Positions 43,577 through 48,765 of a stretch of 64,000 nucleotides of DNA are shown here, piece by piece. Position 1 is the stretch's first letter. The number at the start of each line of letters is the position of its first letter. The translations under genes were made by a program, and so were the position numbers. Source of the stretch: Nonlabens xylanidelens (GTDB taxonomy: Bacteria > Bacteroidota > Bacteroidia > Flavobacteriales > Flavobacteriaceae); NCBI RefSeq assembly GCF_002934445.1, contig NZ_PTJE01000007.1, positions 62,001-126,000 of the forward strand, read 5' to 3'. The notes beneath the pieces are model-generated. The model was given only the letters and a program-made list of their open reading frames with translations, was not told the DNA's origin and made no database searches.

Positions 43577-45250
43577 TTATTCCTTTATTTCAAAAATGAT
43601 AGGTAAAGCATAAATAGTGGTTACTGCTTTTCCTTTTTGCTTACCAGGAATCATTTTTGGTAGTTTGTTAATTACACGGGCAGCCTCATTTTGTAGCTCA
43701 ATGCTTTTAGCTTTAGACTGTACACCTGTGACATTACCATTTTTATCGATTTTGAATTGAACCGCAATTTTATGGCGTCCTGGTAAGTCTTTTGCAATCT
43801 CTGTATTGAAATTCTCATTCACAAATGAAGTGATTTTATCTACGGTACATTTTTTAATTTCTACTTGCGTACCAGTGCAGTCTTCAAAATGAGGTACTTC
43901 TTCTAATTTAGAAAAAGGAATATCAAAATCAACCGCTTCAATACCATCATTGTAACCATCAGTATATGAATGAGTAGTATTAGGGTAGTTGATTGATATA
44001 TATTTCACAAAATTTGCATATTCCTTTTTTGTCATATTTAAATGATATTCCAAAGGGAAACCATCAAATCTCACATCTTTATCAAAAGGGCTTTCATGAG
44101 CGCTTATTATACCGGTATTATCTATATCATCAAGGATAATAGTTGTTCCGTTTTTCATTAGAATAGGAAAAAGAGTCGCTAATTTTCTTATTTTAATAGA
44201 GTCTTCTTTTTTTATTTCAAAAGAATTATTGTTTACAATTTCTTCTATAAATTTTTTATCTTCTTTACTTATATTAAGATAATAATCTTTTAGACCAGCT
44301 TTAAATTCAGATCGTTTTACAATCCCATAATTATTAGAGTCGTCTAGAACTATAGTTTCTTCTATAAATTCTGGCTCTTCATTACAAGCTGTAAAAATCA
44401 AACTACCCAATACTATAGGCAGTAAGAAAGCTAGTTTAAATAAAGCTTTTGCGGTACTTTTCTTTTTTTGTAACATAAGGATTCGGTTTTTTAAAAGTGA
44501 TTTATTGAAATAAGAACTAGCAAGTGAAAATTGTTCTGTGCCAAAAACAGTTTTTAATAAAGACTCTTGATAGGTTATTGATTCTTGATTTTTAATTAGA
44601 ACATCATCCACGATGTATTCATGGACTTGTTTTAATTCTTTTTGTGCGATATAACAAATAGGGTGGAACCAGAAAATGATTTTATACACCTCAAAAGCCA
44701 TCAGGTCCCAAGAATGGCATTGTTTTACATGGATAATTTCATGATTTAGTATTTCATCTACCTTTTTAGAATCTAGATTTTCATCTATCACTATATTTTT
44801 AAAAAATGAAAAAGCAGTAAGTTTTTGAGATGTTTTAGTGATCCATATTCCATCTTTGAAATGAGTTGTTCCTAACCTAATAATCTCTTTTATGCTAGAC
44901 ACATTATATAGAAAAAAGAGAAGACTGATAAATGCACCTATACTATATATACTCACGGCGATCATTTTGTAATCAATAGGTTTTGATGTCTTTATGGTAA
45001 TAGGTTGTTCACTTATCATAGATACATTACCTATATCTACCGATGCGAGTGGTACTACCTCATCGATTACCGTTGGAGTCATGTCTATAGAAAAAGGCGC
45101 GCTCAAAAACGGAATGGTTATGCTAAGCAAAGGAATAGCTAGTAAATAAGCTCTATTCCATTGAAAAAACGTTTCTTTTCTTAGAAAAAGATGGTAAACA
45201 CCATATAATAATACGGCAAGTAAAGAGCTGTGTAAGATATGTTGTATCAT
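43577..45250 (-). CDS. M56-family (BlaR1-like) membrane peptidase with TonB-type C-terminal domain
   Basis: The 557-residue protein has N-terminal membrane helices (about 3-20, 35-52, 90-115). An M56 peptidase domain with zinc motif H-E-I-I-H (~169-173) and the later H-E-Y-I-V-D-D follows, then another helix near 270-290 that reads like a lipobox (L-I-F-T-A-C). The C-terminal TonB-like domain (~465-557) contains V-Q-F-K-I-D-K-N-G-N-V-T-G-V. BlaR1/MecR1 relatives sense a cell-wall signal and cleave the BlaI repressor. The TonB-type end is common in Bacteroidota M56 proteins. It lies downstream of a second M56 gene and blaI. Confidence 0.85.
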   Translation of the reverse strand: MIQHILHSSLLAVLLYGVYHLFLRKETFFQWNRAYLLAIPLLSITIPFLSAPFSIDMTPTVIDEVVPLASVDIGNVSMISEQPITIKTSKPIDYKMIAVSIYSIGAFISLLFFLYNVSSIKEIIRLGTTHFKDGIWITKTSQKLTAFSFFKNIVIDENLDSKKVDEILNHEIIHVKQCHSWDLMAFEVYKIIFWFHPICYIAQKELKQVHEYIVDDVLIKNQESITYQESLLKTVFGTEQFSLASSYFNKSLLKNRILMLQKKKSTAKALFKLAFLLPIVLGSLIFTACNEEPEFIEETIVLDDSNNYGIVKRSEFKAGLKDYYLNISKEDKKFIEEIVNNNSFEIKKEDSIKIRKLATLFPILMKNGTTIILDDIDNTGIISAHESPFDKDVRFDGFPLEYHLNMTKKEYANFVKYISINYPNTTHSYTDGYNDGIEAVDFDIPFSKLEEVPHFEDCTGTQVEIKKCTVDKITSFVNENFNTEIAKDLPGRHKIAVQFKIDKNGNVTGVQSKAKSIELQNEAARVINKLPKMIPGKQKGKAVTTIYALPIIFEIKE

Positions 45251-45335: not shown

Positions 45336-46604
45336 TTAGTTTTTAGGATTTACAGATATTTTCATATTTGAGGTATCGATACTATCGTTTAGCCATTTTA
45401 TAAATTCTAGATACTCCTTACTATTTATATCTTTTGCCTTTAAACTTTTTAAAATAGCATCATCCATTTTTCTATTAGATGCGATACTATCTAATTCTAA
45501 TTGAAAAGCAATTCCTTCTGGGGAATTTATATATGCTTCATGATCGTAAGGTTCTCCTTTATATATTTGAGCATATTCATCACCTTCTTCAAATGAATAT
45601 CCACTGATAGTTAATTTTTCCAAAGCTTCCATATCTTTAAAACTTATAGAATCAGTTTTTTTAAGTGTTTCTTGAAGGTTACTTATTTGTTCTTCAAGAC
45701 TCATTTCTTTCTCTTTTGCAGTAGTACATGAGGTATAAACAACGGTAGAAAGTAGTAGTATTAATAGAGTTGCATATCGTATTTTGGAAATTTTAGGTGT
45801 AGATTCTTTGTGTAACATAGATATTCTAGTTTTAATGGTTTTAAAATTGAAAAACATATTGGCAAATGATATAGAATTGGTATCAAAGGTTTCCTTTAAT
45901 AAAAGCTGAGCATAGTTTTTAGTTCCTACTTGTTGTGCAACAGCACGATCTGCTAGAAGTTCGTGCGTTAATTTTAAACGGTTTAAAAAGAGGTAATGAA
46001 ATGGTTGAAACCACATTACGATACCTAACAATTGAAAGAAAATCAAGTCAAAATGATGGTTCTGCTCGATATATACTTGCTCATGAGCGATTATTGACTC
46101 TAGATCTTCATTTTTTATTTGATCACCTATTAAAATAGAGCCTACAAATGACAGTGCTATTTTACTATCATTGATTTGATAGTATCTAACACCGTTAAGT
46201 TTTTTTAAGGTTCCTTTATTTTTCACCTTTTTTAAATTATAATATGATTTTATAAAATAAGTCAGAGATATACCTACTCCTAATAAGTAAACCCACCACC
46301 AAGAAAAAGTAATTGAACCTTCTTCTTTAGTCTTCAATTCAGTAGGAATTTCAATAGCTTGATAATCTACAGGACTTATGTTAAGCTCTTCTTGTATTGT
46401 AGAATTTTGAAATAGAACTTCTTCTGCAATTGGTTCTTGATTCAAAGAATCAATATTTATAAGAGGGATAAACCATAATATTACTGGAACGATCAAAAGA
46501 TAGGAGCGATTGCTATTTAAAAAAGTGGTTGTTTTAAGAAGCAATTCATATATGGCAAATGCACAAACATGTAATATGAGAACAGTTAATAAGTAGTCTA
46601 TCAT
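45336..46604 (-). CDS. M56-like membrane protein with altered zinc motif
   Basis: The 422-residue protein has several N-terminal helices (about 3-20, 33-50, 98-118) and an M56-like domain. The zinc motif reads H-E-Q-V-Y (~174-178), where the family has HExxH, so the second His is Tyr. The downstream H-E-L-L-A-D-R is kept. A helix near 275-292 ends with S-C-T-T-A-K, and a polar C-terminal region without TonB domain follows. It may be a non-catalytic sensor partner of the second M56 protein. Its start overlaps the blaI stop by 4 nt, so the two are translationally coupled. Confidence 0.8.
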   Translation of the reverse strand: MIDYLLTVLILHVCAFAIYELLLKTTTFLNSNRSYLLIVPVILWFIPLINIDSLNQEPIAEEVLFQNSTIQEELNISPVDYQAIEIPTELKTKEEGSITFSWWWVYLLGVGISLTYFIKSYYNLKKVKNKGTLKKLNGVRYYQINDSKIALSFVGSILIGDQIKNEDLESIIAHEQVYIEQNHHFDLIFFQLLGIVMWFQPFHYLFLNRLKLTHELLADRAVAQQVGTKNYAQLLLKETFDTNSISFANMFFNFKTIKTRISMLHKESTPKISKIRYATLLILLLSTVVYTSCTTAKEKEMSLEEQISNLQETLKKTDSISFKDMEALEKLTISGYSFEEGDEYAQIYKGEPYDHEAYINSPEGIAFQLELDSIASNRKMDDAILKSLKAKDINSKEYLEFIKWLNDSIDTSNMKISVNPKN

Positions 46605-46963
46605 GATTTCTTTTTATTAATATCATTTAATATCTCTTCTAGATCTTGTACGCTTAGGTCTTCTTGTTCCATAAAAAACGAAACCATATTTTTAAAAGAA
46701 CCTTTAAAATAATTACTAGCTAGTTTTCCGGCAGTGGCAGCAGTGTAGGTTTCTTTATTTACTTTAGGAAAATAGATATGTCCACGACCTTCTTTGCGAT
46801 AATCCACAAAACCTTTGTTTTCTAAAATTCTAATTATGGTAGAAACGGTATTGTAGGCAGGTTTAGGAGATTTCATTTTTTCTATAATGTTCGCTACGTT
46901 TGCTTCTTTAAGCGACCATAGGTGTTGCATTATCTCTTCTTCGGCAGTGGTGAGTGTTTTCAT
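46601..46963 (-). CDS. BlaI/MecI-family winged-helix repressor
   Basis: The 120-residue protein has a winged-helix domain: T-T-A-E-E-E-I-M-Q-H-L-W, A-N-V-A-N-I-I-E-K-M, Y-N-T-V-S-T-I-I-R-I-L-E-N-K-G-F-V and G-R-G-H-I-Y-F. A C-terminal dimerisation helix pair follows (V-S-F-F-M-E-Q-E-D-L-S). Family members bind paired operators as dimers and are inactivated by cleavage by a BlaR1-type peptidase. Two M56 genes follow with 4-nt coupling. Three matching operators lie just upstream (46968-47025), strongly suggesting autoregulation. No beta-lactamase gene is nearby. Confidence 0.92.
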   Translation of the reverse strand: MKTLTTAEEEIMQHLWSLKEANVANIIEKMKSPKPAYNTVSTIIRILENKGFVDYRKEGRGHIYFPKVNKETYTAATAGKLASNYFKGSFKNMVSFFMEQEDLSVQDLEEILNDINKKKS

Positions 46964-46967
46964 ATTT

Positions 46968-46983
46968 AACTAAGTTCTTAGTT
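46968..46983. promoter_or_regulatory. Probable BlaI-type operator O1
   Basis: AACTAA-GTTC-TTAGTT, an inverted repeat of AACTAA with a 4-nt spacer, 4 bp before the blaI-like start codon. Confidence 0.75.
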
Positions 46984-46991
46984 CAAAATTA

Positions 46992-47007
46992 AACTAACTA
47001 TTTAGTT
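46992..47007. promoter_or_regulatory. Probable BlaI-type operator O2
   Basis: AACTAA-CTAT-TTAGTT, the same inverted repeat as O1, 8 bp from it. With O3 it forms a perfect 34-bp palindrome (46992-47025). Confidence 0.8.
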
Positions 47008-47009
47008 TA

Positions 47010-47025
47010 AACTAAATAGTTAGTT
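47010..47025. promoter_or_regulatory. Probable BlaI-type operator O3
   Basis: AACTAA-ATAG-TTAGTT, 2 bp from O2. Its position, 78 bp before lemA, means the repressor could also affect the divergent gene. Confidence 0.75.
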
Positions 47026-47103: not shown

Positions 47104-47694
47104 ATGAGCAAATCAACCGCATTAATTATCCTAATAGTCTTTGTAATCATAACAAGTCCTTTTTGTTTTGTAGGCTTCATTATCGTTTTGTTTTTATACA
47201 ATAGTATAGTTAGACAAAAGAATAGGGTAGGCATGAGTTATAGCGGTATAGATGTGGTTCTTAAAAAACGATATGACCTGGTGCCTAATCTAGTAGCTAG
47301 TGTAAAAGAATACATGAGTCATGAAAAGGAGTTGTTTGAAAAGATCACTTCATTAAGAAGTAAAATTCCTAATGCTACTTCTAAAGAAGAGCGTTTTGAA
47401 ATGGAAAATCAAATGTCACAACTTCTAGGAGGCATCAATGTATCGTTAGAGAACTATCCAGATTTAAAATCTAGTGAGAACATGATACAACTGCAAAGAA
47501 CTCTTACAGAGATGGAAGAACAAATAAGTGCGGCAAGAAGAGCTTATAATTCTAATGTTTTAGCACTTAATGATAAAATAGTAACTGTACCTTCTAATGT
47601 CTTGGCTGCATTTTTAGAATATAAACCTGCTATTTATTTTGAAACAACTGATTCTGAAAAGATTAATCCAAACGTTTCATCCCTATTTAGATAA
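47104..47694 (+). CDS. LemA family protein
   Basis: The 196-residue protein has one N-terminal membrane helix (about 6-30) followed by a long helical domain. The LemA signatures are S-Y-S-G-I-D-V-V-L-K-K-R-Y-D-L-V-P-N-L-V, Y-P-D-L-K-S-S-E-N and A-A-R-R-A-Y-N-S. LemA proteins are conserved membrane proteins of uncertain function, sometimes linked to envelope stress. The DUF3137 gene follows after 6 nt, a common pairing. It shares its upstream region with the BlaI-like gene. Confidence 0.9.
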   Translation: MSKSTALIILIVFVIITSPFCFVGFIIVLFLYNSIVRQKNRVGMSYSGIDVVLKKRYDLVPNLVASVKEYMSHEKELFEKITSLRSKIPNATSKEERFEMENQMSQLLGGINVSLENYPDLKSSENMIQLQRTLTEMEEQISAARRAYNSNVLALNDKIVTVPSNVLAAFLEYKPAIYFETTDSEKINPNVSSLFR

Positions 47695-47700
47695 AATAAT

Positions 47701-48765
47701 ATGAGATCTGAATTAATAGAGTTACTTCGTCAAAATTCTATTCAATTAGAAAAAAAGAGAAGGAAACTTAAACCGCTTGCTTTGTTATACGGTTTTACTG
47801 TTGTACCTATTCGTTTTTTATTAAAAGTGGCGGCAGTTTTAATTGTTATTATAGGGCTTTTTTTTCCTCCTATTGTGTTATGGTTATTCTTAATAGGAGC
47901 TATTTATATAGGATTAATTTTTATACCTAACCCTAAGGAAATTTATCACGATTATATAAAGGAAGGTATTTTACCAGAAATTTTTAAGGCAGTTAATTCA
48001 AATTACAAATATGAGCCTTTTGGTTATAATCAAGAAGATTTACACAGTAGTGGTTTTTTTAATAAAACTTTTTTTAGAAATAATGTAAGAATCACAGGTG
48101 AGGATCGAGTAAAAGGTGTGATAGAAAATGTAGAAGTTGATTTCAATGAAATTTCATTTTTCAGAGAAGATATTAATTGGCCAAAGTCAATAGGTGTTTT
48201 TTTATTAATAATTTTTTTATTACCTGTCATTATTTTCAGGTTGATTACTAGTGAAGGTGGTGATATTAATGCAGGTTGTGGTGGTTCATTATTTGTACGA
48301 GATACTATTCAATACTACAGAGGACTTTTTTTGTGTGCGGATTTTAATAAAAACTTTGAGGGTAATGTAATTATGATGCCCAAAAGTATTGAAAGTAAGT
48401 GGGATAGATTTACTGATTCTGTTTTTGGATCTTCGTTTTCTAAAATTCAAATAGAAAACCAGTTAATAAATAGTAAATATTCTATTTACACAACTAATTT
48501 GCAAACAGGGTTCTACGTATTGTCTCCTAATTTAATTGAAGCCATTGCTCAAATAATTGAAACTGAAAAGGTGTTACCTATGATTTCTTTTAATTCTGGT
48601 AAAATTTATATGAGTATACCATGGAATCGAGATTATTTTAGTGTAAATATAAATAAATCAGTAGAAGGAGTAGAATATTTTACTAACTATATTGATGATA
48701 TTCAGTCTTTTGAGAAAATAATAAAACATTTGAAATTAAATGTTAAGATATGGTCTAAAACCTAG
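47701..48765 (+). CDS. DUF3137 membrane protein
   Basis: The 354-residue protein has an N-terminal charged helix and two membrane helices (about 38-58 and 61-80). A cytosolic or periplasmic domain follows (~85-155) with Y-E-P-F-G-Y-N-Q-E-D, and another helix lies near 160-180. The C-terminal domain holds the DUF3137 pattern (F-E-G-N-V-I-M-M-P-K, S-K-Y-S-I-Y-T-T-N-L-Q-T-G). It is linked to lemA. Its stop codon and that of the convergent DUF2452 gene share the four bases CTAG (48762-48765). Function unknown. Confidence 0.82.
   Translation: MRSELIELLRQNSIQLEKKRRKLKPLALLYGFTVVPIRFLLKVAAVLIVIIGLFFPPIVLWLFLIGAIYIGLIFIPNPKEIYHDYIKEGILPEIFKAVNSNYKYEPFGYNQEDLHSSGFFNKTFFRNNVRITGEDRVKGVIENVEVDFNEISFFREDINWPKSIGVFLLIIFLLPVIIFRLITSEGGDINAGCGGSLFVRDTIQYYRGLFLCADFNKNFEGNVIMMPKSIESKWDRFTDSVFGSSFSKIQIENQLINSKYSIYTTNLQTGFYVLSPNLIEAIAQIIETEKVLPMISFNSGKIYMSIPWNRDYFSVNINKSVEGVEYFTNYIDDIQSFEKIIKHLKLNVKIWSKT

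What the first reader, a model, noticed from the sequence alone, without database searches (positions are those of the whole stretch)
46968..47025. Three tandem operators form a strong control region for a BlaI/M56 module
AACTAA-N4-TTAGTT occurs three times in 58 bp (46968, 46992, 47010) just before the blaI-like gene. The last two form a perfect 34-bp palindrome. BlaI/MecI proteins bind paired dyads, so this is very likely an autoregulated operator set. It may also reach the divergent lemA-DUF3137 pair. No beta-lactamase is nearby, so the module probably senses another envelope signal.
Basis: partly seen in the sequence, partly recalled or inferred. Interest (0 to 1): 0.65.

Follow-up and report, generated by a model that had tools for sequence, protein, structure and literature searches.

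The report
Self-regulating operator cluster of BlaI-type repressor
Three copies of a short mirror-image DNA site wrap the promoter of a small repressor gene, and the same arrangement precedes that repressor in most related bacteria, so this is a conserved self-repression switch for a membrane-protease signalling module that uses a different DNA code from the textbook penicillin-resistance repressors.

Summary
AACTAA-N4-TTAGTT occurs at 46968, 46992 and 47010 and nowhere else exactly in the 3.28-Mb genome; the last two form a perfect 34-bp palindrome. A Bacteroidota -7 box (TAATTTTG, 46984-46991, minus strand) fits without a gap between the sites at 46968 and 46992, so one site covers the predicted blaI start and the other two the upstream promoter.

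The same pair (17-18 bp spacing) precedes the BlaI orthologue in relatives: 24 of 27 genomes with the orthologue have it, 0 of 32 without. This supports autoregulation strongly; binding itself is not shown.

The genome's three BlaI paralogues each have their own operator type: 18-bp ACTAA, 20-bp ACTA, and canonical TACA-N2-TGTA. Control of the divergent lemA-DUF3137 is not supported: that pair sits here in only two of the compared genomes.

The operon encodes two M56 proteins. M56b has an intact HEXXH and a TonB-type C-terminal domain instead of a penicillin sensor; M56a has HEQVY and is probably inactive. In some other genomes the same operator also marks an undescribed small lipoprotein, absent here.

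New variant of a known kind.

The parts
46968..46983 (.). Operator dyad 3 (promoter-proximal): AACTAAGTTCTTAGTT; ends 4 bp before the blaI ATG, over the predicted transcription start
   Evidence: Exact motif; third dyad at 23-24 bp conserved in the genus, decayed in G018
46984..46991 (-). Predicted -7 promoter box TAATTTTG (TAnnTTTG) of blaI, filling the gap between dyads 2 and 3
   Evidence: Sequence; box at the same offset from dyad 2 in orthologues; consensus from PMC7366714. Not mapped experimentally
46992..47007 (.). Operator dyad 2: AACTAACTATTTAGTT
47010..47025 (.). Operator dyad 1: AACTAAATAGTTAGTT; with dyad 2 forms the 34-bp palindrome 46992-47025
46601..46963 (-). blaI_A, BlaI/MecI-type repressor, 120 aa
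   Evidence: Penicillinase_R E=1.7e-32; best solved relative MecI 1okr E=3.7e-16
45336..46604 (-). M56a, BlaR1-like M56 protein, 422 aa, HEQVY in place of HEXXH, no TonB domain; probably without protease activity
   Evidence: Peptidase_M56 E=3.1e-17; alignment; fold match BlaR1
43577..45250 (-). M56b, BlaR1-like M56 protease, 557 aa, HEIIH intact, C-terminal TonB_C domain
   Evidence: Peptidase_M56 and TonB_C; invariant active-site residues; fold matches BlaR1 and TonB C-terminal domains

Best explanation
The three dyads are the autoregulatory operator of the blaI_A-M56a-M56b operon. Dimers of BlaI_A bind AACTAA-N4-TTAGTT: two side by side on dyads 1 and 2 over the upstream part of the promoter, one on dyad 3 over the transcription start, so that RNA polymerase cannot use the TAATTTTG promoter. 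When the periplasmic TonB-type domain of M56b receives an envelope signal, its cytoplasmic zinc-protease site cleaves or otherwise inactivates BlaI_A and the operon is derepressed. In this genome the operon is the only convincing target. Shown: the sites, their conservation, their place on the predicted promoter, their co-occurrence with BlaI_A, the separate operator types of the paralogues. Inferred: binding, repression, cleavage by M56b, the signal.
For: Only three exact copies in the genome, all in these 58 bp. Orthologues fetched by protein: 22 of 26 have the 17-18-bp pair directly before blaI. Genome-level co-occurrence 24/27 with BlaI_A against 0/32 without. In 299 genomes of the family 228 have tandem pairs, reversed control nearly always zero. 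-7 box directly beside dyad 2 in orthologues. Strict class-A motif positions 97-100% conserved. The BlaI family is known to bind multiple dyads; B. licheniformis BlaI uses three operators (PMC3305447), and BlaR1 cleaves BlaI directly (PMC9834060).
Against: No binding or expression data. The motif differs from the TACA-N2-TGTA operator described for BlaI, MecI and CopY (PMC7253601). The divergent relatives G039 and G052 have the dyads 47 bp apart. No -33 element is evident. The compared genomes are related, so the co-occurrence test overstates independence.
Confidence: 0.87

Rival explanations
1. The operators also control the divergent lemA-DUF3137 pair, so the region is a shared bidirectional control region.
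For: The lemA start (47104) is only 79 bp from the last dyad.
Against: lemA-DUF3137 is at this locus only in G000 and G002; the same three-dyad set is found in genus members where other genes lie upstream. The dyads are centred on the blaI-strand -7 box and no box on the lemA strand overlaps them.
Confidence: 0.1
2. The long palindrome acts as a DNA or RNA hairpin (cruciform, terminator or attenuator) rather than as protein-binding sites.
For: The strand folds far better than shuffles (z = -5.6).
Against: Any perfect palindrome folds so. The 34-bp symmetry is lost in relatives while each 16-bp dyad is kept, and the third dyad is outside the hairpin. The predicted transcription start lies downstream of the palindrome, so it would not be in the blaI RNA.
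Confidence: 0.03
3. The dyads are bound by another regulator, not by the BlaI encoded next to them.
For: The motif is not the canonical BlaI code and two other BlaI paralogues exist in the genome.
Against: The 18-bp class tracks BlaI_A in 24/27 against 0/32 genomes, including genus members that keep BlaI_B and BlaI_C but lack BlaI_A. Each paralogue has its own operator type.
Confidence: 0.05
4. M56a is not inert: it is either the true antirepressor or an inactive partner that dimerises with M56b and tunes it.
For: M56a sits next to blaI with a 4-bp overlap, the place held by the single M56 in relatives. It keeps the other conserved residues of the protease core apart from one Pro. BlaR1 is a domain-swapped dimer with an intermolecular active site (PMC9834060).
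Against: M56a alone of 53 aligned M56 proteins lacks the second zinc-ligand His and it lacks TonB_C, found in 35 of 38. It departs from near-invariant columns more than any relative (10 of 30), which also fits decay. M56b is the orthologue of the M56 of relatives. One C-to-T transition explains Tyr178, so an assembly error is possible.
Confidence: 0.25

Closest known systems
BlaI/MecI repressors and their bla/mec operators (S. aureus, B. licheniformis)
   Same: Same repressor family, gene order repressor-receptor in one operon, several dyads over the promoter, autoregulation expected. B. licheniformis BlaI also uses three operators (PMC3305447).
   Different: Operator AACTAA-N4-TTAGTT instead of TACA-N2-TGTA; no beta-lactamase or PBP2a gene under it; Bacteroidota-type promoter.
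BlaR1 receptor protease of S. aureus (PDB 8EXP, 8EXQ, 8EXR, 8EXS, 8EXT)
   Same: M56 domain; in M56b HEXXH and ExxxD; predicted fold match.
   Different: C-terminal domain of M56b is TonB-type, not beta-lactam-binding. M56a lacks the second zinc-ligand His and has neither domain.
CopY/CopR copper repressors
   Same: Same wider repressor family, usually two operators before the own operon (PMC7253601).
   Different: Operator code differs and the NCBIfam CopY_TcrY model is well below cut-off (58 against 122 bits).
BlaI_B and BlaI_C modules of the same genome (contig 9:39401-39751 and contig 1:116365-116703)
   Same: blaI-M56 order with tandem dyads upstream.
   Different: BlaI_B: 20-bp spaced ACTA-N6-TAGT. 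BlaI_C: canonical TACA-N2-TGTA pair 27 bp apart, its second copy overlapping a TAnnTTTG box.

Membership tests
BlaI/MecI/CopY repressor family | Penicillinase_R winged-helix domain | tested here: met
   PF03965, 112.6 bits against cut-off 22.6; MecI 1okr E=3.7e-16
BlaI/MecI/CopY repressor family | Inverted-repeat operator dyads at its own promoter | tested here: met
   Three dyads and -7 box, conserved. Binding not tested
BlaI/MecI/CopY repressor family | Canonical TACA-N2-TGTA operator core | tested here: not met
   None before blaI_A; the only tandem canonical pair of the genome is before BlaI_C. The outer ACTA/TAGT frame and overall dyad length are similar
BlaI/MecI/CopY repressor family | Cleavage by the M56 partner at N101-F102 (S. 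aureus BlaI numbering) | not testable with these tools
   By alignment to MecI the Phe after the cut is kept and the Asn before it is Phe here; the cut itself needs the bench
BlaR1/MecR1 M56 receptor | M56 domain with HEXXH and ExxxD zinc site | tested here: met
   M56b: H170, E171, H174, E211, D215 invariant in 29 relatives
BlaR1/MecR1 M56 receptor (M56a) | HEXXH zinc site | tested here: not met
   HEQVY, Tyr178 instead of His; unique among 53
BlaR1/MecR1 beta-lactam receptor | C-terminal penicillin-binding sensor domain | tested here: not met
   M56b has TonB_C; M56a has no second domain; NCBIfam blaR1_generic 26 and 23 bits against cut-off 400
bla/mec resistance operon | Beta-lactamase or PBP2a gene under the same operators | tested here: not met
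   Neighbours are lemA, DUF3137, DUF2452, GSDH, ECH; no other tandem class-A operator in the genome

The most novel reading that the evidence does not exclude
Flavobacteria run three insulated BlaI-M56 circuits in one cell, each with its own operator type. The class-A circuit uses a TonB-fused protease to sense outer-membrane or TonB-receptor state and controls an undescribed envelope lipoprotein where present. In this genome it also carries an inactive M56 that dimerises with and tunes the active one.
Probability: 0.3. Interest if true: 0.62.

Novelty: new variant of a known kind. Interest (0 to 1): 0.43.

Why it matters
BlaI-M56 modules are common in the related genomes examined, yet in the literature I could search I found no description of their operators or targets there. 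This work gives an exact operator definition and promoter geometry, shows that three paralogues in one genome have distinguishable operators, and names a first recurring target outside the operon in relatives (a small lipoprotein). That makes the module's function, and the basis of operator discrimination, directly testable. If Tyr178 of M56a is real, the operon also holds an inactive homologue inside a proteolytic signalling pathway.

Tried and rejected
Wider regulon in the window's own genome: one-mismatch sites are not enriched over control and those inspected lie in coding frames or, once, at the 3' side of neighbouring genes. Shared control of lemA: rejected by neighbourhood comparison. 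Hairpin role: symmetry not conserved. Close relatives of M56a: none in genome contigs; in the genus only its tail has a close match, at a broken contig end of G021 beside the same GSDH gene. The lipoprotein found in relatives is absent from this genome. PADLOC gave only weak partial matches to the repressor. The pattern allowed too short a gap and found only 17-bp pairs; repeated correctly. An operator-like pair in G176 beside a ribonuclease gene (L141) is itself a hairpin-like palindrome and was set aside. Literature searches for flavobacterial BlaI operators or TonB-fused M56 proteins found nothing to the point.

Full report
Observation. Three exact AACTAA-N4-TTAGTT sites lie at 46968-46983, 46992-47007 and 47010-47025. 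Chance gives 0.03 per window, and none of 100 shuffles gave three. The 3.28-Mb genome has no other exact copy. Tandem ACTA-N6-TAGT pairs occur at only two places in it: here and before a second blaI paralogue on contig 9. The last two sites form a perfect 34-bp palindrome.

Promoter anatomy. Read on the minus strand the order is dyad 1, 2-bp spacer, dyad 2, TAATTTTG, dyad 3, 4 bp, blaI ATG. TAATTTTG fits the Bacteroidota -7 consensus TAnnTTTG; the -7 part of that consensus, though not a -33 motif, was confirmed in Flavobacterium johnsoniae (PMC7366714). In orthologues the -7 box, where present, usually starts 14-15 bp after the start of the ACTA-N6-TAGT core of dyad 2, that is directly beside it. 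Centre distances of 17-18 and 23-24 bp put dyads 1 and 3 about four helical turns apart. A repressor on dyads 1-2 would block the upstream promoter and one on dyad 3 the start site and leader. This is inference from geometry.

Phylogenetic footprint. Orthologues were fetched by protein, not by motif, from 59 genomes. Of 26 orthologous loci, 22 have the 17-18-bp pair directly before blaI. G033 has it 1.9 kb upstream, G014 has one decayed half-site, and the divergent G039 and G052 have dyads 47 bp apart. Scoring whole genomes for the strict pair gives 24 of 27 with BlaI_A and 0 of 32 without (Fisher p = 1.4e-13, overstated because the genomes are related). The third dyad, 23-24 bp downstream, is a feature of the window's genus (decayed in G018); elsewhere it is absent or 26-35 bp away. 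Across 299 genomes of the family, 228 have tandem pairs and the reversed control is nearly always zero.

Operator classes. Pairs with 17-18-bp spacing precede BlaI_A with M56_A; pairs or triples with 20-bp spacing precede BlaI_B with M56_B; the three BlaI_C loci read have canonical TACA-N2-TGTA pairs 27 bp apart. The last is the only such pair in this genome, C1:116293-116329. The aligned DNA-recognition region differs accordingly: YNTVST or YNTLST in nearly all A and B proteins, TTTIAT in C. That this difference sets the code is a hypothesis. Loci L102-L151 were collected by motif, so they show which genes follow motifs, not how often genes have motifs.

The proteins. BlaI_A is a Penicillinase_R protein with MecI as nearest solved structure. 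M56b has HEIIH, the E and D of the second motif, and a C-terminal TonB_C domain. Its predicted model matches BlaR1 and, at the C-terminus, TonB domains (mean pLDDT 76, pTM 0.46, so a domain-level statement only). TonB_C is found in 35 of 38 class-A M56 proteins scanned. The periplasmic part is therefore a TonB-type module rather than a penicillin sensor; what it senses is unknown. By analogy with BlaR1, which cleaves BlaI directly (PMC9834060), M56b is expected to inactivate BlaI_A.

An apparently inactive extra M56. The other 12 genus members with the locus have one M56 beside blaI; here a second, M56a, lies between. It is about 28% identical to M56b, so it is not a recent tandem duplicate. 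Its tail resembles the M56 at the same locus in G021, where the contig ends. It has HEQVY where the other 52 aligned M56 proteins have HEXXH. One C-to-T transition suffices, so a sequencing error remains possible. It keeps the other conserved protease-core residues except one Pro, but departs from near-invariant columns more than any relative. BlaR1 is a domain-swapped dimer with an intermolecular active site, so modulation of M56b by M56a is conceivable; nothing here tests it. Tandem M56 genes also occur in G195, both with HEXXH.

Regulon in relatives. Class-A pairs away from blaI in G004, G020 and G328 sit before members of one small lipoprotein family (about 173 aa, no Pfam or NCBIfam model). 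Searching by protein found 12 homologues in all. Apart from those three, G317 has operator-lipoprotein-blaI-M56 in one unit, G274 and G214 have the gene right after M56_A, and G031 has one exact dyad upstream. So 4 of the 9 homologues not found by motif are linked to the module. Two genomes have class-A pairs beside a secreted TPR protein. The window's genome lacks the lipoprotein, so here the circuit appears to control only itself.

lemA-DUF3137. This divergent pair is at the locus only in G000 and G002; in most others the DUF2452 gene is next to blaI. The operators do not depend on it. I rate control of lemA at about 10%.

Verdict. The kind is known (an autoregulated BlaI-M56 operon); the variant is new in operator code, paralogue-specific operator types, TonB-type domain and extra M56. 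Binding, signal and proteolysis remain untested.

Noticed in passing
46071-46073 (codon 178 of M56a): HEXXH of M56a reads HEQVY: the second zinc-ligand His is Tyr (TAT). Unique among 53 aligned M56 proteins; one transition, so strain mutation or assembly error is possible.
   Followed up: partly
47104-48765: lemA-DUF3137 lies between the DUF2452 gene and blaI in this genome and G002 only; a lemA homologue also lies near the BlaI_B locus in both (L034, L081).
   Followed up: partly
M56b residue 289 (43577-45250) and relatives in alignment A2: An invariant Cys follows the last transmembrane helix of class-A M56 proteins (FTAC, YTSC, YTAC), resembling a lipobox; the periplasmic TonB-type domain might be cut off and lipidated. 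Two further Cys in the TonB part are also invariant.
   Followed up: no
L162:2600-3121, L163:3030-3578, L139:2951-3472, L175, L171, L173, L166: Undescribed small lipoprotein family linked to class-A operators or to the blaI-M56 operon in 7 of 12 genomes that have it; absent from the window's genome.
   Followed up: partly
L131:18-1493 (G178): A triple class-B operator (20-bp spacing) lies directly before a PF00144 beta-lactamase/DD-peptidase-family gene, far from any blaI in the stretch read.
   Followed up: no
L035, L082, L083: In BlaI_C loci the second canonical operator TACATTTGTA contains a TAnnTTTG -7 box (TACATTTG), so operator and promoter element are the same bases.
   Followed up: no
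L143, L145: Two more divergent BlaI loci (G097, G329) have 20-bp spaced dyads with outer T instead of A (TACTA-N6-TAGTA), perhaps a further operator type.
   Followed up: no
L132:3582-7501 (G195): Operator followed by two M56 genes and then blaI, both M56 with intact HEXXH: a second case of tandem M56 in this module.
   Followed up: no
window: 16013, 21449, 23358, 29991, 32353, 39681, 43548, 49397, 54503, 57609, 63024: CGCTTTCGCGAAAGCG, a 16-bp perfect palindrome, occurs 11 times exactly (15 with up to 2 mismatches) in 64 kb with none expected; function not examined.
   Followed up: no
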